The notes beneath the pieces are model-generated. The model was not told the DNA's origin. It was given only the letters and a program-made list of their open reading frames with translations, and did no database searches. From Magnetococcales bacterium (GTDB lineage: Bacteria; Pseudomonadota; Magnetococcia; Magnetococcales; JADFZT01), in assembly GCA_015232395.1 (NCBI GenBank), contig JADFZT010000005.1, positions 72,298 through 106,828 of the forward strand: a DNA stretch of 34,531 bases. Reading direction: 5' to 3'. The position numbers and the translations under genes were made by a program. This document shows, in pieces, positions 8,850 through 34,531 of this stretch. Positions within the stretch are counted from its first letter, which is position 1; every line of letters starts with the position of its first letter.

Positions 8850-9178
8850 CTTGCCGCTCCGCCAGGAAAGTCCGCGAGGGATCGAATGAGGGTGACTGCC
8901 ATATTGCCCCGGATGGGTCTTCTTCTGCTACCGGGAAAATGTGTGCAGGGTCTTTTGATGGTTGGTCTCACTTTACTCTGGATGGGTAATGTTGGCCTAC
9001 CGGGAAATTGGATGCCAGAGCAGATAGCAGCTGTTCCCATTTTGACCTGAGTCGGCAAGGTGGCACCACCGGAAAAAAGAATCAGGGAGCGTTGGACGGC
9101 TCCGGTCATGGCCGGGTGGATGGCCGCAGACCTGACGATTCGATGGGTGGCAAAAGCCCCTTTGGCGGCCATGGTCAT
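8846..9178 (-). other. carA leader with a repeat-encoding open frame (possible leader peptide)
   Basis: Between the carA promoter and the carA start lies about 350 nt of leader. One frame is open from an ATG at 9178 to a TGA at 8846-8848, which would encode up to 110 residues. This TGA overlaps the TTG start of carA. In this frame the peptide shows a 23-residue periodicity (F-[PS]-G near position 5, LP.Q..K near position 11, M or V at 17), matching the 69-bp DNA repeat. No strong ribosome site precedes any in-frame ATG, so translation is uncertain. Immediately 5' a nine-residue frame MVFLFYLIP (9175-9204) begins within a few bases of the predicted transcription start, and its stop overlaps the ATG at 9178. 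I do not recognise a known pyrimidine-control element in the leader. Confidence 0.3.
8857..9117 (-). repeat. Degenerate 69-bp tandem repeat in the carA leader
   Basis: On the minus strand the core TTTCCCGGTAG (or close variants) recurs every 69 nt. On the plus strand CTACCGGGAAA occurs exactly at 8928-8938 and 8997-9007, a diverged copy (CCACCGGAAAA) sits at about 9066, and a partial copy lies next to the carA start. Sequence flanking the core is also shared, for example GGATGGGT at 8911 and 8980. The unit length is a multiple of three and similarity is partly kept at codon level. About three to four copies are recognisable, with a possible older, more diverged copy upstream. Confidence 0.6.
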
Positions 9179-9212
9179 GGGATCAGGTAAAAGAGGAAAA
9201 CCATGACTGCGG

Positions 9213-9241
9213 GTTATAACGCCAACCCCGTTCCAAGTCAA
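9213..9241 (-). promoter_or_regulatory. Sigma-70 promoter of carA
   Basis: On the minus strand there is a -35 box TTGACT (9236-9241), a 17-bp spacer and a -10 box TATAAC (9213-9218). This is close to the vegetative consensus with ideal spacing. Transcription would begin near 9206. It lies between divergent carA and the PDZ-protein gene and is the most convincing start for the carA-to-guaA run. Confidence 0.7.
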
Positions 9242-9275
9242 CGCCGTCACCGGCCAGGATGACGGTTGGTGAGTG

Positions 9276-9305
9276 TTGCGAAAAGGGGGCTGAAATGGTT
9301 TATTT
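9276..9305 (+). promoter_or_regulatory. Possible promoter of the PDZ-protein gene
   Basis: TTGCGA (9276-9281) and TTATTT (9300-9305) are separated by 18 bp, ahead of the ATG at 9349. The match to consensus is moderate. It would run divergently from the carA promoter about 35 bp away. Confidence 0.3.
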
Positions 9306-9348
9306 AGAATGGACCAATTTGCCGACATATCCATCAGGAGAGAGCTCC

Positions 9349-10434
9349 ATGAAGAAGCGTCCTGGGAGAAGTCCCACGGTAAAGAGAAGCTGTTGGTTGC
9401 TTGTTGTGGGATTATTTTGCGCAATCCCGGCTCCGGGGAGTCTCTTGGCCGGAGGGTGGTTGGGGGTCACCATCGAGCCTCCCCAAGGGGTGCAGATCGG
9501 GGAAATTGTCAAAGGAAGCCCTGCGGATAGCGCCGCTCTTTTGCGGGGGGATATCATCACCCGGGTCAATGACGAACCCGTCCACTCCATCTGGCACTTT
9601 TCCTCTACCATCGCCAGCTATCAGGCCGGGGATGTGGTGACGCTGACGCTCTTGAGAGAGGGAGGGGTTCATGAAATCGAGGTGACCCTGGATCAGAGCG
9701 TTCAGCATCCCTCCTTTCTCCAGGGGAGGGCATCCAGCTTCAGTGGGCAGGGGGGATCCAGAGGATATTCGCCTGAGGGAATGCCGCCAAACAGCCCCAT
9801 GCCCTCTCAAGGAGGGGGAGCTTGGAATTCATTCAGCCCTGGCGGTTTTGCTCCTGGAAGTGGTTATGGCCCGGGTGGAGGGTATGGTTCCGGGAATGGT
9901 TATGGTCCCGGCGTGCGCTATGGCCCTGGGGGTGGTTATGGTCCGGGCGGGGGGTATGGTCCTGGGAATGGCTATGGCCCAGGGAACGGTTATGGTTCAG
10001 GTATGGTCTATTCTCCTGGGGGTGGCTATGGCCCAGGCTTGTTCTACGGTCCTGGGAGTGGCTATGGCCCGGGGAGCGGCGCTGGCTCAGATGCGATGGC
10101 GCCAGGGAGTGATTTGGCTCCGGGGAGTGGGGAGATCCAACCGGCTCCCCCTGAAAAAGCCTATTTAGGGTCTTGGCTCGGTGTGGCCATGGGGGTGGCG
10201 GATGGGGGGGTGGTGATTTTGGGTGTGGCCCCCGCAAGCCCTGCCCAAGCGGGTGGGCTGGAAGAGGGGGATATTATCCTGGCAGTCAATGATCAGACCG
10301 TTGCCAACAGCGCTGACCTGACGCGCATCATCCAGGAGACGCCCCCTGGCGAGGAGGCGCGCATTGTGGTGCGCCGGGCTCGGGAAACCCGAACCATGAC
10401 GACAACCCTCGGTGAACGGCCTTTGGTGCCATGA
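9349..10434 (+). CDS. Exported protein with two PDZ domains joined by a Gly-Tyr-Gly-Pro repeat linker
   Basis: Product of unknown specific role, 361 residues. A basic N-terminus and hydrophobic stretch (about residues 16-36, CWLLVVGLFCAIPAPG) look like a Sec signal, so it probably acts in the periplasm or on the surface. The first PDZ domain (about residues 37-115) has GWLGVTI, VKGSPADSAALLRGDII and VNDEPV. The second (about 270-355) has GSWLGVAMG, VAPASPAQAGGLEEGDII and VNDQTV. Between them is a low-complexity linker with twelve GYGPGx-type hexapeptides. There is no protease domain, unlike DegP/HtrA, so it is more likely a peptide-binding adaptor or scaffold. The ATG at 9349 follows AGGAG with 7-nt spacing and gives a clean signal peptide; the frame opens earlier, at 9259, but that extension breaks the signal. 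sfsA starts 46 bp downstream. Confidence 0.85.
   Translation: MKKRPGRSPTVKRSCWLLVVGLFCAIPAPGSLLAGGWLGVTIEPPQGVQIGEIVKGSPADSAALLRGDIITRVNDEPVHSIWHFSSTIASYQAGDVVTLTLLREGGVHEIEVTLDQSVQHPSFLQGRASSFSGQGGSRGYSPEGMPPNSPMPSQGGGAWNSFSPGGFAPGSGYGPGGGYGSGNGYGPGVRYGPGGGYGPGGGYGPGNGYGPGNGYGSGMVYSPGGGYGPGLFYGPGSGYGPGSGAGSDAMAPGSDLAPGSGEIQPAPPEKAYLGSWLGVAMGVADGGVVILGVAPASPAQAGGLEEGDIILAVNDQTVANSADLTRIIQETPPGEEARIVVRRARETRTMTTTLGERPLVP
9862..10077 (+). repeat. Twelve tandem 18-bp units encoding GYGPGx hexapeptides
   Basis: Residues 172-243 of the PDZ protein consist of twelve consecutive hexapeptides of the form GYGPGG/GYGPGN/GYGSGN, a few with R, V or F in place of the first G. DNA units differ mainly at third codon positions, which argues for selection on the peptide and not very recent slippage. 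Such Gly/Tyr/Pro linkers are flexible and extended, resembling structural or adhesive glycine-rich proteins. Confidence 0.9.
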
Positions 10435-10480
10435 GGTATCTTCCGGTTTTCCGAAGTCCTGGACTGATCGCGGCTCTTCT

Positions 10481-11185
10481 GTGCGTTTTCAAGAACCATT
10501 AATCCCAGGGAGGCTTCTCAAGCGCTACAAGCGTTTTTTGGCTGATGTGGAACTGCCGGGGGGGGAGATCCTGGTGGCCCACTGTCCCAACACCGGGGCC
10601 ATGACCGGCATGGCTCAACCGGGGACGCCGGTTTTGCTCTCCCATTCCAACAATCCCCGGCGCAAACTGGCCCATACCTGGGAGCTGGCTCAGGTTGAAA
10701 AAAACTGGGTAGTGGTCAATACCGGCCTCGCCAACCGGGTGGTGGCGGAAGGATTGGCAGCGGGGGGAATTCCGGAGCTTGCCGGTTATCCACACCAATC
10801 CCGGGAAGTGCGCTATGATGAGAGCCGGTTTGATTTTTGTCTGACCGGTGGCGATAGGCCCTCCTGCTACCTGGAAGTCAAAAGCGTTACCCTGCGCCAG
10901 GGGGAGGGGGCTTTTTTTCCGGATGCAGTCACCGAACGGGGTCTGCGGCATCTGGAAACCCTGGTCCGAGTGGTACAAGAGGGCCACAGGGGGGTGATGC
11001 TCTATCTGGTGCAGCGGGCGGATTGCCGTTTTTTTGCGCCAGCCATCACCATTGATCCGGCTTATGCAAAAGGCCTTCAAGAAGCCGTCAAACAAGGCGT
11101 GGAGGTCGTGGTCCGGGTTTGCCGGGTCACACCACAGGGGGTTGCCCTGTACCGAACGATTCCTTTTGAAATGAACCCGGAATGA
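10481..11185 (+). CDS. sfsA: SfsA family protein (sugar fermentation stimulation protein homologue)
   Basis: SfsA family members are thought to bind DNA, and they contain a restriction-endonuclease-like fold; the molecular role is not settled. Family motifs are clear: RLLKRYKRFLADVELPGG, HCPNTGAMTGM, NPRRKLAHTWEL, VNTGLANR, CYLEVKSVTL and FPDAVTERGLRHLETL. Asp/Glu-x-Lys nuclease-like residues (LEVKS) are present. The GTG at 10481 gives 234 residues, the same length as E. coli SfsA, and places the start correctly; an upstream GTG at 10412 would overlap the PDZ gene and add unrelated residues. The stop overlaps the map start as ATGA, indicating translational coupling. Confidence 0.93.
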   Translation: MRFQEPLIPGRLLKRYKRFLADVELPGGEILVAHCPNTGAMTGMAQPGTPVLLSHSNNPRRKLAHTWELAQVEKNWVVVNTGLANRVVAEGLAAGGIPELAGYPHQSREVRYDESRFDFCLTGGDRPSCYLEVKSVTLRQGEGAFFPDAVTERGLRHLETLVRVVQEGHRGVMLYLVQRADCRFFAPAITIDPAYAKGLQEAVKQGVEVVVRVCRVTPQGVALYRTIPFEMNPE

Positions 11186-29410: not shown

Positions 29411-29677
29411 GTCGGATGATTTTGGCAACCCCCTGGACTTTGCTGGAAAACCCTGCTGTTGTGTCCGGTAAATTCATTTAAAATCCCGGGAAGTCCACTG
29501 CTGGAAAGGGCGTTTTCCATGATGGTAAAAGGGTTTTTGTGCTCCCTATCATCCCCGTGGTGACGCGAGCCTGCCATTGCGGTGGAAGCTCCTGTGGGCT
29601 ATTAATAGCGCGATTCCAGGCCCAGGTCTTCAGCCTGAGGGCCGTTACCAACCCCAGCCATGCAACCGGGGGGTGCC
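29411..29677. other. Intergenic region before the giant coiled-coil gene
   Basis: No gene is supported here. Short imperfect repeats of TGCTGGAAA occur near 29436 and 29499. A weak TAAAAT box lies near 29480, but no well-spaced -35 is seen. A stop codon in frame at 29636-29638 limits how far upstream the next gene can begin. Confidence 0.5.
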
Positions 29678-32600
29678 ATGGGTAGATCCTCTTTCTTTTC
29701 AACGCTCGTTTCCGCCCTCTGGACCCTGACGCTGATCAGCGTCTCGGTTTATGCGGGTTATTATGTCGCGCTGATTCTGGATTGGTCCATTGTCCAGAGC
29801 TACATCACCCTTCCCGGGTTTTTAAGCGTTCCCCTGGAGTATCAGACCGAGACCCCCATCATTCGCACGTTGGCCGGGGTGATTTCCGGATTTTTGCTCT
29901 TCTTCATCATCTGCTATGTCTGGCAGGCCTTCTGGGACGCCTTTCGCCTGGGAATGGTCAGCCGCTCCCTGCGGGTGGCGATGAAAAAGGGCCGTCTGGA
30001 AAATCCCGAACGTCCGGTGATCGATTGGGGTTGGTTTTACTATCCGCTCTTCAGCCGTTTATGGCGGGATTTTGCCGAAACCCTCCACTGTCAGCGTCAC
30101 CCGGATGCCAAGGTGGATGAAAACCGGGTGCAGTATCGTGCAACAGCCCCCGCAGAGCTTCATTTTAGTCCCCAAACCCTGGTAGACACCCCCATGAAGG
30201 TGGAGTTTTTCCGCCACCTTCCCGGCATCCTCACCGGTGCGGGTATCGTCAGCACCTTTGCCGGTATTCTCCTGGGCTTGACCGAGTTTAATCCGGTGGT
30301 GGAGCCCGATCAGGTCACCTTACAGCTGCAAAACCTCTTCATGGGGGTTTCAACCGCCTTCGTCGCCTCCTTTTTTGCCATTTTCACCGCTATCTGCATC
30401 ACCGTGGTGGAAAAGCTGCTGCTCCACTGGCGCTATGCCCAGGTGACGGCGCTCCAGGGACGTCTGGACGATATGTTTCAGGCTGGGGTGGAGCCGGAAT
30501 ATCTGGCAGAGCTGGTCAAGAGCGGGAGCGAGCAATCCGACCGTCTGGAGGCTCTGGCGACCCAGTTTGTTCCCCGCCTCACCGCTTTTTTGGAGCGCTC
30601 CGGTGAGTCTGACGCTCTGCAAGGGGGAGCCCTTGATAAAATTTTGGATCCTCTGGCCGAAAAGCTGGCTGCAAGCCAAGCCAACCAAACCCGGGCACTG
30701 GCGGAAAAATTGGCTGAAAACCAGGCCAATCAAACCCGGGCGCTGGCAGAAGCGCTCAAAAATGGCCTGAACGAGCCCCTCAAGCTGATCTCCAAATCGG
30801 TACAGGTGACCCTGGAGGAGCAGCGCAAGGGGGGGGAATCCATCGATGCTCTCAAGAGCGGCTTGGAGGGTGTGGGTGAAAAACTGGACCGGATTGTCGG
30901 TGCGGTGAATGGCCTGGATGGGGTGTTGCGTGACGGGCACAACGACCACGCCCAGCGGATGGCCCGGGAAGCGGAGGCCACCGGGCAGAGGGCGGATGAG
31001 CAAGCCCGACACCTCAAAGAGGGGCTTCAGGGGCTGGGAGAGCGGTTCGAGACGGTTGGTGATCGACTCCAAGGGGCCATCGCCGGGTTGCAACAAAACG
31101 GTGAGGGTATCCAACAGCTGCTGGAAAAACAGACCAATCAGCTGGCTCAGGGGGAAGAACGGGATCAGGAGCAGGCCCTGAAGCAGGCTCGGGCTCAGGA
31201 GCAGGCTCAGGAGCAGGCCCAAGCTTTGACCCAGGGTTTGGAGGGGTTAAGCCAAAAGCTGGATGAGGGGGTCGCTGCCGTCAAAGAGATCTCCGGCTCC
31301 GTGGATAAAACGATGGGGGGGCTTTCCAGCTCTCTAAATGAAACGATGACAGGGATCTCCAGCTCTCTGAATAAAGAGTTGGGAGCTCTTTCCAGCTCTC
31401 TGAATGAAACGATGACAGGGATCTCCAGCTCCCTGGATGAAACGATGACGGGACTTTCCAGCTCCCTGAATGAACAAACAGGAGGGCTTTCCAGCTCCCT
31501 GAATGAAACGATGACGGGACTTTCCAGCTCCCTGAATAAAGAGATGGGGGGGATGACCGATTCCCTCACCAAGGGATTTGATACCTTGGGAGGCCAGCTC
31601 AATCAAGCGGCTGAGGGGGTTTCTGCCGTGGGTGGAAAGCTCACGGGGCTTCTGGAAAAACAGTCCAGCCAGTTGACGGCCCAGTTGGCAGACCAGGCGG
31701 CTCAGGCGGGGGATGGGGAGCAGGCCCGCGCTGATCGAATGACCCAAGGGCTGGAAGCTCTCGGAGAAAAGCTCGATCAGGCCATCGAAGGCATCGCAGC
31801 CTTTTCCCAAATGGGCTCCCAGCTGAAAGAGGTGTTGGAGGAGCAGTCCCAGGCACTGGCCCAAGGGACTCAAGGGGAACGGGAGCAAGGGCTTGAAGTC
31901 ATTGGCGCTTTGCAGAGTCTGGGAGAAAAACTGGATCAGGCAGGCCAAGGCTTGGCAGGGCTTGATGGGGCGGTTGGTGAGATATCCAATCGTCTGAAAT
32001 CCGGCTTGGATACCCTCAGACAGGGAATCGATGGCCAGGGCCAGGGGATCGAGGGAATCAACCAGGGGATTGCGGGCATCAGCCAAGGGATCGAGGGAGT
32101 CAACCAGGGGATCCATGGGTTCGGCCAAAAGGTGGAGAGTTCGGTGGCCGGGGTATCCCGGGTGGGCGGGGAGTTGCGAGGGCTTTTGCAACACCAAGCC
32201 GAGCTTCTGGAAAAAAATATCGCTGGGGAGCAAGAGCGTGCTGCCGGGGAGCGGGAACGTGGCGATATGTTGATTTTGGGCATCGAAGAGTTGGGAGAAA
32301 AGGTGAATGGGGCGGTTTCCGGCATTTCCGATGCCTTGAAGGGGGGGGTGGGGGATCTCAAGAGCCAGCTGGCCCAGAGCCATGCCGGAATCGATGGGCT
32401 TGGCGAGGTGCTACAAGGGGTGTTGGCCAGCCAAACCGCCCGGCAGGAAGTGGAAGGCACGGAGCAACAGGCGCAGTCGGAACGGGTTTCCATCGCTTTG
32501 GATGGTCTCGGTAGCCGGTTGGATCAGATCGGTCAGCAGCTGGATGGGGCGGCATCCGGGATTTCCGCAGGCCTGACTTCGGAGCTTCAAGCCCTGGGAG

Positions 32601-34531
32601 GCAAGCTGGACCAGGCGGTATCGGGGGCCTCGGATATTTCGGATGTGGGCTTGGAGATTCAAAATATTTTGGAAAGCCAAGCCTCCCTTCTGACCGAATC
32701 TGCCGAACGGGACAAAGAGACCGCACAAAGGCAGGGTCAGGGATTGGAGAGCATCGGCGAACGGATGGATGGTGCCCTGTCGGTGGTCGCCAAGGCTCTT
32801 GATGGCGGCTTTAAGGAGTTGGGGGATAAAGTGGACCTGGGGGTTGCCGGGATAGCCGACCTGGGAGCGGGCCTCACCGGATCGTTGGCCAAGCAGGCGA
32901 CGGAACTGAGCCAACAAACCAGCCGTTTGAACGACTCTGCCCAGAAAGGTCAGGAGGGGCTTGCCGCCGTTGCGGAAAAACTTCAGGGGTTGGGTGACAA
33001 GCTGGATGGGGGAATCAATGCCCTGGCAGATGCCGGAGGAGAACTCAAGGGGCTCATGGAAGATCAATCCGCCCTGATGGTGGATGCCGCCCAACAGGAG
33101 CGCCATTTAAGCCAAACCCTCAACACCGCACTGGATGGGATAGGCGAAAAACTGGCTGACTCTCTGGCGCTGTTGCGTCGTGAGTTGGGGGAGCGGGGTG
33201 AGCGCCTGGATCGGGTTTTGGATGCCATTCCCACCACGCTGACAACAGGCTCCCAGCAGGTCAAAAAAGCCCTTGAGAGTGGCCTGGTCGCCATACCCCA
33301 GCTGGTGGAAAATCTGGAAGCTCTGCGCCAGGAGCAGGGGGAGCGGGCCTTGATTCTGCGTCAGGATCAAGATGCCAGAGACAAGGCCTTGCGCCAGGAT
33401 CAAGACGCCCGGGACAAGGCGTTGCGCCAGGAGCAGGATAGCCGCAGTCAGGCGGAACGCTCTCTGCTGGAATCCGCTCTCACCACCAATCGCCTCTCTC
33501 TGGAAAAAGGGGTGGCCGCACTCCACGACAAGCTCCATGAGGTGGCGCAAAAGCTGCCCTCAGGTAGCGATATCCAGAGCTTGATGAAAGAGCTTTCCCA
33601 AGCCCAACAGCAGGCTGACAAGGAGCGGGATGCCTTTCTTTTGAATCGCCTCAGCGCCGGTCAGGGGGAGTTGATTGAGCGGGTGGAAAAATCCTTCAAC
33701 GCGGGCCAAGGAGCCCTGGTCGAGCGGGTGAAGGAGTCCTTCGATGCCGGATTGGAACAGCCGGTACAGGAGATTGTCGAGCGGGTCTCGGAAGTGCGGG
33801 AGGCGCAACTCGCCCAGGGGCGGGAGTTGAGTGAAGGCATTTTGAACGCTTTTGCCCATCAGCTCCGTGAGACCGTCAGCAGCTTGGGGGATCGTCTGGG
33901 AGAACTTGGAGAGCGAATCACCAGTGAGCGGGAAGGGATGGAGGCCACCTTTAAAAATTTGGTGGTGGCCATGGGCGAGGCTGCCGAACAGGGGGGAGAA
34001 AAGCTCTCTTCCCAGCTGGACAGGGCTTTGGCCGGTAGTGAGCTGCGCCAGGATGAGCTGATCGAATCCCTGACCAAATTTACCGCCGATATCCGGGTGG
34101 ATCTCGACCAGTTGCAGGTCAAAATCCGGGACACCTCACAGGAGCTTTCCGACAATCTGGTCAGCCAGACCCAGGAAATATCCGCTCAAACCGGTGAGGC
34201 CACCGAACAGCGTATCGAAGCCTCTACCAGTCAGCTTTCCCGGGAATTCAAGGCTACCCTGCAAAAATTGGAGCAGGAGCAGGCCCAGCGGGAGAAGAGC
34301 CGGGAGAAGGATCTCATGGCCCGGCTCCAGGCTGGGGACGATGATCTGGCCAAGCGTCTGGTTACAGCCATCCAGTCCGATCTGGCTGGATCAGCCGATG
34401 GTCTGGCCGAGCGGCTTCAGAGTGCGATCCAAAAGGATTTGAGCAGTTCCACGGATGGTCTGGCCGAGCGGCTTCAGAGTGCGATCCAAAAGGATTTGAG
34501 CAGTTCCACGGATGGTCTGGCCGAGCGGCTT
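29678..34531 (+). CDS. Giant ZorA-like MotA/TolQ/ExbB channel protein with coiled-coil tail (open at window edge)
   Basis: At least 1618 codons with no stop before the right edge. Two N-terminal helices (about residues 5-30 and 60-85) precede a soluble segment. The proton-channel-type core follows: LPGILTGAGIVSTFAGILLGL (about 181-201) and LFMGVSTAFVASFFAIFTAI (about 220-240). This two-helix pattern is that of MotA/TolQ/ExbB proteins and closely resembles ZorA of the Zorya anti-phage system. From about residue 255 on the protein is a continuous, Gln/Glu/Leu/Gly-rich predicted coiled coil with internal repeats, far longer than I expect for ZorA (roughly 500-750 residues). Start ATG 29678 follows GGGGG; an ATG at 29660 is in frame but lacks a ribosome site. 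A ZorB-like OmpA/peptidoglycan partner would be expected downstream, outside the window. A non-defence stator role is the main alternative. Confidence 0.85.
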   Translation, partial: MGRSSFFSTLVSALWTLTLISVSVYAGYYVALILDWSIVQSYITLPGFLSVPLEYQTETPIIRTLAGVISGFLLFFIICYVWQAFWDAFRLGMVSRSLRVAMKKGRLENPERPVIDWGWFYYPLFSRLWRDFAETLHCQRHPDAKVDENRVQYRATAPAELHFSPQTLVDTPMKVEFFRHLPGILTGAGIVSTFAGILLGLTEFNPVVEPDQVTLQLQNLFMGVSTAFVASFFAIFTAICITVVEKLLLHWRYAQVTALQGRLDDMFQAGVEPEYLAELVKSGSEQSDRLEALATQFVPRLTAFLERSGESDALQGGALDKILDPLAEKLAASQANQTRALAEKLAENQANQTRALAEALKNGLNEPLKLISKSVQVTLEEQRKGGESIDALKSGLEGVGEKLDRIVGAVNGLDGVLRDGHNDHAQRMAREAEATGQRADEQARHLKEGLQGLGERFETVGDRLQGAIAGLQQNGEGIQQLLEKQTNQLAQGEERDQEQALKQARAQEQAQEQAQALTQGLEGLSQKLDEGVAAVKEISGSVDKTMGGLSSSLNETMTGISSSLNKELGALSSSLNETMTGISSSLDETMTGLSSSLNEQTGGLSSSLNETMTGLSSSLNKEMGGMTDSLTKGFDTLGGQLNQAAEGVSAVGGKLTGLLEKQSSQLTAQLADQAAQAGDGEQARADRMTQGLEALGEKLDQAIEGIAAFSQMGSQLKEVLEEQSQALAQGTQGEREQGLEVIGALQSLGEKLDQAGQGLAGLDGAVGEISNRLKSGLDTLRQGIDGQGQGIEGINQGIAGISQGIEGVNQGIHGFGQKVESSVAGVSRVGGELRGLLQHQAELLEKNIAGEQERAAGERERGDMLILGIEELGEKVNGAVSGISDALKGGVGDLKSQLAQSHAGIDGLGEVLQGVLASQTARQEVEGTEQQAQSERVSIALDGLGSRLDQIGQQLDGAASGISAGLTSELQALGGKLDQAVSGASDISDVGLEIQNILESQASLLTESAERDKETAQRQGQGLESIGERMDGALSVVAKALDGGFKELGDKVDLGVAGIADLGAGLTGSLAKQATELSQQTSRLNDSAQKGQEGLAAVAEKLQGLGDKLDGGINALADAGGELKGLMEDQSALMVDAAQQERHLSQTLNTALDGIGEKLADSLALLRRELGERGERLDRVLDAIPTTLTTGSQQVKKALESGLVAIPQLVENLEALRQEQGERALILRQDQDARDKALRQDQDARDKALRQEQDSRSQAERSLLESALTTNRLSLEKGVAALHDKLHEVAQKLPSGSDIQSLMKELSQAQQQADKERDAFLLNRLSAGQGELIERVEKSFNAGQGALVERVKESFDAGLEQPVQEIVERVSEVREAQLAQGRELSEGILNAFAHQLRETVSSLGDRLGELGERITSEREGMEATFKNLVVAMGEAAEQGGEKLSSQLDRALAGSELRQDELIESLTKFTADIRVDLDQLQVKIRDTSQELSDNLVSQTQEISAQTGEATEQRIEASTSQLSREFKATLQKLEQEQAQREKSREKDLMARLQAGDDDLAKRLVTAIQSDLAGSADGLAERLQSAIQKDLSSSTDGLAERLQSAIQKDLSSSTDGLAERL
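31325..31555 (+). repeat. Seven tandem 33-bp units encoding 11-residue SSSLNETMTGI-type repeats
   Basis: Within the coiled-coil tail, seven consecutive 11-residue units of the type SSSLNETMTGI, SSSLNKELGAL and SSSLNEQTGGL occur. DNA copies are highly similar, including blocks such as TCCAGCTCCCTGAATGAAAC. An 11-residue (hendecad) period favours straight or right-handed coiled coils rather than the usual seven-residue left-handed type. Confidence 0.9.
32021..32130 (+). repeat. 21-bp tandem units encoding GIxGxxQ heptads
   Basis: About five consecutive seven-residue units (GIDGQGQ, GIEGINQ, GIAGISQ, GIEGVNQ, GIHGFGQ). The high Gly content could mark a flexible or less helical break in the tail, or a beta-type repeat. 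Confidence 0.75.
33359..33457 (+). repeat. Three 33-bp units encoding RQDQDARDKAL repeats
   Basis: Two identical 11-residue units RQDQDARDKAL are followed by a diverged one, RQEQDSRSQAE. It is a second hendecad block in the same tail, here highly charged and strongly helical. Confidence 0.85.
34397..34531 (+). repeat. 57-bp tandem repeat in the giant gene, running off the window
   Basis: Units start at 34397, 34454 and 34511 and are identical as far as can be seen in the overlap, each encoding DGLAERLQSAIQKDLSSST (19 residues). The third copy is cut by the window edge. Identity at DNA level, including silent positions, indicates recent duplication or gene conversion, so copy number may vary among strains and may be mis-assembled from short reads. 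Confidence 0.92.

What the first reader, a model, noticed from the sequence alone, without database searches (positions are those of the whole stretch)
34397..34531. Identical 57-bp tandem repeats at the window edge extend the tail by 19-residue steps
Three copies (the last cut) are identical at DNA level. Since the unit is a multiple of three and encodes DGLAERLQSAIQKDLSSST, unit gain or loss would change tail length without breaking the frame: a possible molecular ruler. It is also a spot where assemblies collapse.
Basis: seen in the sequence. Interest (0 to 1): 0.6.

Follow-up and report, generated by a model that had tools for sequence, protein, structure and literature searches.

The report
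Growing rod on a bacterial motor
The repeats lie in the long rod-like tail of a Zorya-type membrane motor protein of a magnetotactic bacterium, where in-frame duplications seem to have lengthened the rod by very different amounts in different species while both of its ends stayed the same.

Summary
In detail: two identical 57-bp units plus a 21-base stub end the window. The window stops there because the assembly has a 99-N gap inside the array; the frame resumes in the same unit and runs 186 more codons. It is not a phage tail gene. It encodes a ZorA-type motor subunit (at least 1,810 aa) of a Magnetococcales bacterium, in an operon with a CYTH-CHAD protein, an HDOD protein and ZorB. In relatives this ZorA branch keeps a conserved motor and C-terminal cap, but the rod between spans 490-2,607 residues (18 full-length genes); ordinary Zorya ZorA have 416-607 (53 genes). 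Tandem repeats cover 5.3% of the giant genes and 0.03% of the ordinary ones, and most large length differences between close relatives fall in such arrays. Step-wise growth of the rod is thus supported between species; a measuring 'ruler' role and copy-number change within a species are not shown. ZorC is absent from this genome: a variant of the Zorya motor, not a complete Zorya system. Links to polyphosphate (CHAD) or MamK (next-door gene in one genus) are testable guesses.

The parts
29660..34531 (+). ZorA-type motor gene, 5' 1,624 codons; goes on beyond the window across a 99-N gap to a stop at L003:7488-7490 (G000:C5:107487-107489)
   Evidence: PADLOC ZorA1 PDLC00598 E 1e-91, NCBIfam NF033916 181 bits (cut-off 250, not reached); profile of the motor matches ZorA of PDB 8qyd E 8e-47
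29660..30445 (+). motor domain (aa 1-262; membrane helices and ion-channel part), conserved in relatives
   Evidence: alignment A3, 19 rows, mean column identity 57%
30446..34531 (+). tail (rod): coiled-coil periodicity, in-frame tandem repeats
   Evidence: 46 of 51 windows of 100 aa periodic, median 3.59 residues; single-sequence AlphaFold model of 33950-34531 is one unbroken helix 34-193, mean pLDDT 78
30653..30751 (+). in-frame tandem repeat, 45 bp (15 aa), 2.2 copies
31160..31218 (+). in-frame tandem repeat, 30 bp, 2 copies
31288..31566 (+). in-frame tandem repeat, 33 bp (11 aa), about 7.5 copies, also seen as 66 and 99 bp
32039..32128 (+). in-frame tandem repeat, 21 bp (7 aa) / 42 bp
33357..33439 (+). 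in-frame tandem repeat, 33 bp, 2.5 copies
34340..34396 (+). diverged copy of the 57-bp unit (34/57 bases)
34397..34531 (+). 57-bp array: two identical units and a 21-base stub, cut by the assembly gap that follows the window

Best explanation
The repeats belong to the cytoplasmic rod of a ZorA-type subunit of a 5:2 ion-driven motor. ZorB, encoded in the same operon, anchors the motor to peptidoglycan; five ZorA chains bundle into a rod. This Magnetococcales branch keeps both ends of ZorA (motor and a C-terminal cap, EQxxFIEMLGERLDxLRKRL) and lets the rod between them grow and shrink by in-frame tandem duplication of helical segments. In this genome the newest duplication is the 57-bp one: 19 residues, five helical turns, about 2.8 nm each. 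The rod most likely carries the cap, and whatever binds it (the CHAD or HDOD partner is the obvious candidate), to a distance set by rod length and passes motor force to it. Shown here: gene identity, operon, repeats, fixed ends, length spread, indels in arrays. Inferred: pentameric rod, force transmission, identity of the partner, any selection on length.
For: ZorA and ZorB matches. The ZorB ion-channel Asp (D25) and peptidoglycan-side D140 and R155 are invariant in 28 of 28 relatives (which residues matter is recalled, apart from PMC11890865 passages). All 20 motors of this type form one clade, 97/91 support. Tail length 490-2,607 in 18 full-length genes against 416-607 in 53 ordinary ZorA. 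Cap residues E, Q, L, E, R, R invariant in 24 of 24 rows. Repeats cover 5.3% of the 20 giant genes (10 of 20 have any) against 0.03% of 53 ordinary ones (1 of 53). Sister species differ by one 32-aa unit inside a 96-bp array, by 42 aa in a 41-aa array, and by 47 and 120 aa overlapping arrays. The 19-aa unit has its own period 3.80 = 19/5, and the region models as one helix. Published: ZorA C-termini bundle into a pentameric rod and mutations there abolish defence (PMC11890865, passages).
Against: 10 of 20 giant genes show no TRF array, so recent tandem growth is not visible everywhere (older arrays may have decayed). One of the five tail indels of 20 aa or more in the three closest pairs lies outside any array. 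The motor-to-cap distance may drift neutrally; no length-function relation was tested. CHAD is missing from the operon in the four fetched loci of family f9 and HDOD in the eight of genus g7, so neither can be the universal partner. In three genomes ZorA lies on another contig than HDOD-ZorB.
Confidence: 0.62

Rival explanations
1. It is a Zorya anti-phage system that has lost or swapped its effectors: CHAD and HDOD proteins take the place of ZorC and ZorD, and the long rod is an alarm that reaches further into the cell.
For: Best family matches of ZorA and ZorB are Zorya models; Zorya types already differ in effectors (ZorE in type II, PMC11890865).
Against: No ZorC match in this genome; the strong ZorC matches, 6 of 48 genomes, and a weaker one in G013 lie beside ordinary-type ZorAB (an eighth, marginal match in G001 does not). 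The type is found in 30 of 48 genomes of the order by full motor match, its tree groups follow the families, and amtB or glnK genes lie nearby in several families: inherited like a core gene, not scattered like a defence island. CHAD and HDOD proteins have no PADLOC match.
Confidence: 0.25
2. The repeats are plain replication slippage in a repetitive coiled-coil gene, tolerated because the rod length does not matter; there is no ruler and no adaptive meaning.
For: In-frame periods are expected in any coding repeat (68 of 80 outside ZorA). Lengths differ even among close relatives (544-1,059 in genus g7).
Against: Ordinary ZorA, equally periodic (seven examined), stays at 416-607 with almost no repeats, so tolerance is peculiar to this branch. 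Conserved ends suggest that something at the far end matters.
Confidence: 0.4
3. The array is an assembly artefact or is collapsed to fewer copies than the cell has.
For: A 99-N gap sits in the array, and 99 fits neither the frame nor the 57-base period.
Against: Two full units are in one contiguous stretch, a diverged unit precedes and a diverged one follows, and the array-like growth recurs in relatives' assemblies. Collapse of further copies is likely; absence of the array is not.
Confidence: 0.05
4. The gene is a phage tail tape-measure gene.
For: Long coiled-coil protein with fixed ends and variable repeats, as in tape measures (recalled).
Against: Membrane motor domain at the N-terminus, ZorB partner, housekeeping neighbours.
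Confidence: 0.01

Closest known systems
Zorya anti-phage system, ZorAB motor (type I closest)
   Same: ZorA motor domain, ZorB with plug and OmpA domain, long ZorA cytoplasmic tail (PMC11890865)
   Different: Tail 490-2,607 aa instead of 416-607; no ZorC in this genome and no ZorD next door; CYTH-CHAD and/or HDOD genes between zorA and zorB; own clade
MotAB, TolQR and ExbBD 5:2 motors
   Same: Ion-driven membrane core (MotB_plug and OmpA in ZorB)
   Different: Those have short cytoplasmic parts; here a giant rod (recalled for the comparison)
CYTH-CHAD proteins (E. coli ygiF) and CHAD polyphosphate-binding proteins
   Same: Operon partner L003:7511-9043 matches an inorganic triphosphatase (PDB 5a60, N-terminal part, E 6e-8; that it is ygiF is recalled) and a CHAD domain (6qv5, E 6e-5); Pfam CHAD 54 bits, cut-off 25.6
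   Different: Tied to a motor operon; binding of polyphosphate not tested here
Phage tape-measure proteins and other rulers (recalled)
   Same: Fixed ends and variable repetitive middle
   Different: No structure is known whose length this rod sets

Membership tests
Zorya system | ZorA motor protein | tested here: met
   PADLOC PDLC00598 E 1e-91; below NCBIfam cut-offs: NF033916 181 of 250, NF041794 174 of 750 bits
Zorya system | ZorB with ion-channel Asp, plug and OmpA domain | tested here: met
   PDLC00611 E 8e-68, Pfam MotB_plug and OmpA above cut-off, Asp invariant in 28 of 28; below NCBIfam ZorB1 cut-off, 191 of 400 bits
Zorya system | ZorC and ZorD (or ZorE) effectors alongside | tested here: not met
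   No ZorC model PDLC00624 match in G000; CHAD, HDOD and GAF neighbours without PADLOC match; ZorD and ZorE not sought genome-wide
Zorya system | component size conserved within the type | tested here: not met
   Tail SD/mean 0.49 (18 genes) against 0.09 in ordinary ZorA (53 genes)
Zorya system | anti-phage activity | not testable with these tools
   needs an experiment
Molecular ruler | conserved ends, variable middle | tested here: met
Molecular ruler | length sets the size of some structure | not testable with these tools
   no structure measured
CHAD polyphosphate-binding proteins | CHAD domain | tested here: met
   Pfam PF05235 54.4 bits, cut-off 25.6
CHAD polyphosphate-binding proteins | polyphosphate binding | not testable with these tools
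   needs a binding assay

The most novel reading that the evidence does not exclude
Magnetotactic cocci have turned the Zorya rotary motor into a cargo or inclusion handler: a peptidoglycan-anchored motor with a rod of species-tuned length (tens to hundreds of nanometres) that holds or stirs polyphosphate inclusions through its CHAD partner and, in one genus, works with a MamK filament encoded next door. The 57-bp repeats would be the unit by which the rod is lengthened.
Probability: 0.2. Interest if true: 0.87.

Novelty: new variant of a known kind. Interest (0 to 1): 0.6.

Why it matters
Zorya components are described as well conserved in size within each type (PMC11890865, passages). A branch with fixed ends and a five-fold range of rod length is a natural experiment on what the ZorA tail does: reach, force or signal. 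It also puts a phage-defence-type motor, inherited like a core gene, next to CHAD proteins and, in one genus, to MamK. Magnetococcaceae are reported to fill up to 90% of their cell volume with polyphosphate (PMC8786505, passages). If the motor handles inclusions, the evolutionary origin of Zorya and the positioning of bacterial inclusions become testable together.

Tried and rejected
Phage tail reading: rejected, see rivals. Special meaning of in-frame periods: dropped, since repeats elsewhere are also mostly multiples of three. General assembly weakness at zorA: dropped, 5 breaks seen against 4.0 expected. A rule that all repeat lengths fit coiled-coil turns: considered by hand, too few independent arrays, not claimed. 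Magnetosome island around the window: the 36 kb to the left read as housekeeping genes by eye plus one stand-alone MamK, so not claimed. Foldseek with the helix model: no match, as expected for a lone helix. Pfam hits of the tail to apolipoprotein and the like are coiled-coil composition.

Rows dropped: from the length comparison L003 (gapped) and L056 (contig edge) of 20 giant genes; L117 and L134 (broken, under 400 aa) of 55 ordinary ZorA found in 56 loci (L094 had none); the loci L069-L092, which are largely the same genomes again. In the tree every third ordinary locus of L093-L148 was used plus those of L061-L068 with a motor. Lengths were measured stop to stop from an anchor after the motor, the ordinary ones with a second anchor query for some, so they are good to some tens of residues.

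Full report
What is there. The window ends in two identical 57-bp units and 21 bases of a third. The gene's frame is open from 29660 to the edge. The window is G000:C5:72298-106828. Beyond it the contig has 99 N and then goes on with the same unit from its 21st base (33 of 37 bases alike), a diverged unit, and 186 codons in all to a TAA. Because the right side starts on the third base of a codon, the true gap must be 2 mod 3, and 57k-1 if the array is perfect; 99 is neither, so the copy number is open. Two units plus a hybrid third is the least possible. The unit occurs nowhere else in the genome.

What the gene is. The N-terminal 262 residues are a ZorA motor domain and the rest is a tail: PADLOC ZorA1 E 1e-91, PDB ZorA 8qyd E 8e-47 with the family profile. 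It scores below the curated NCBIfam cut-offs, so it is ZorA-like, not a textbook ZorA1. Downstream lie a CYTH-CHAD gene (L003:7511-9043), an HDOD gene (9056-9940), a ZorB gene (9953-10909) and, apart, a GAF gene. Genes to the left within the window are housekeeping by eye, with an ammonium transporter by Pfam.

Who has it. In 48 genomes of the order (own included) a giant-type motor match of 280 bits or more is seen in 30. Of 28 loci with the matching ZorB, 20 hold a CHAD gene and 20 an HDOD gene; the four loci of family f9 lack the operon's CHAD and the eight of genus g7 lack HDOD. A genome-wide look in ten genomes found only shorter, stand-alone CHAD matches in the four f9 genomes. In three genomes of g17 ZorA sits on another contig than HDOD-ZorB, with CHAD beside it. 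Motors of this type form one clade (20 rows, 97/91) against ordinary ZorA (26 rows) and a third, magnetosome-cluster type (9 rows).

How the tail varies. Between motor and stop the 18 full-length giant genes have 490-2,607 residues (mean 1,077, SD 530); 53 ordinary ZorA have 416-607 (mean 469, SD 41). The tests (Levene p 8e-9) ignore relatedness. All 24 alignable C-termini end in the same cap. TRF arrays cover 5.3% of the giant genes and 0.3% of the DNA around them; in ordinary ZorA 0.03%. All 36 rows in giant genes are in frame, but that is expected of coding repeats. In the three closest pairs, 4 of 5 tail indels of 20 aa or more overlap an array: 32 aa (L050/L053), 42 aa (L047/L049), 47 and 120 aa (L043/L044); the fifth, 37 aa, does not (positions of arrays). 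A fourth pair, L038/L048, shows none in the tail. Within genus g7, L058 lacks 96 residues, the length of three 32-aa units, relative to L050. One ordinary ZorA of the order (L062) has a tail of 740 instead of about 458 and carries a 273-bp repeat, the same process in the other type.

How it would work. Published ZorAB is a 5:2 motor whose ZorA C-termini bundle into a pentameric rod; mutations in the rod abolish defence (PMC11890865, passages only; the Nature paper on Zorya was not held). Here the tail is periodic at 3.5-3.8 residues and the repeat region models as one helix (single sequence, mean pLDDT 78, so modest support). At 0.15 nm per residue (recalled) the rod would reach up to about 230 nm in this species and about 390 nm in the longest, against about 70 nm for ordinary ZorA; these are upper bounds. 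Each 57-bp unit adds about 2.8 nm.

What for. Two readings remain. Defence: the nearest families are Zorya. Against it, ZorC is missing here and the strong ZorC matches in the order go with ordinary ZorAB, and the locus behaves like a core gene. Inclusion or cytoskeleton: CHAD domains bind polyphosphate and CHAD proteins localise to polyP granules (PMC6537752, passages); Magnetococcaceae accumulate polyphosphate massively (PMC8786505, passages); in genus g7 a MamK-family gene (480 bits, cut-off 400) lies directly upstream of zorA in 7 of 7 genomes with upstream sequence, two of them with only the MamK end on the contig. This is neighbourhood evidence from one genus and is not proof.

Novelty. 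A search for 'Zorya' with 'magnetosome' gave no paper; the searches listed none on a giant-tailed ZorA in these bacteria, judged by title and start of abstract; the library lacks most subscription papers. It is best called a new variant of a known kind of motor.

Noticed in passing
L153:12119-18097, L154:11237-17424, L155:1466-6241: A ZorA-ZorB-ZorC-like trio (ZorA-like ORFs 1,157-1,633 aa) lies among magnetosome genes: MamN, MamM, MamE and MamH matches in L153 (MamE below its cut-off) and MamD in L154; ZorC-like was matched in L153 and L154. The ZorA-like gene is seen in 16 of 48 order genomes, in 12 of them 7.6-18.2 kb from a MamK on the same contig. No paper with 'magnetosome' and 'Zorya' was found. 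May deserve its own study.
   Followed up: partly
L050:7528-8598, L052, L053, L055, L060: MamK-family actin gene directly upstream of giant zorA in genus g7; these genomes have further MamK copies elsewhere.
   Followed up: partly
L062:3658-6573: Ordinary-type ZorA of 972 aa with a 273-bp tandem repeat, 2.2 copies at 91%: tail lengthening also in a Zorya locus that has ZorC next door.
   Followed up: no
L163:4739-9610 and L041: In G040 ZorA-CHAD and HDOD-ZorB lie on different contigs: the operon has been split in part of genus g17.
   Followed up: partly
window 9852-10070: Degenerate in-gene repeats (18, 36, 54, 72 bp) in another gene, 9259-10434.
   Followed up: no
G000:C5:56057-57055 (in L152:3965-5062): Stand-alone MamK-family gene (507 bits) among housekeeping genes 15 kb left of the window; the genome has two more over the cut-off.
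   Followed up: no
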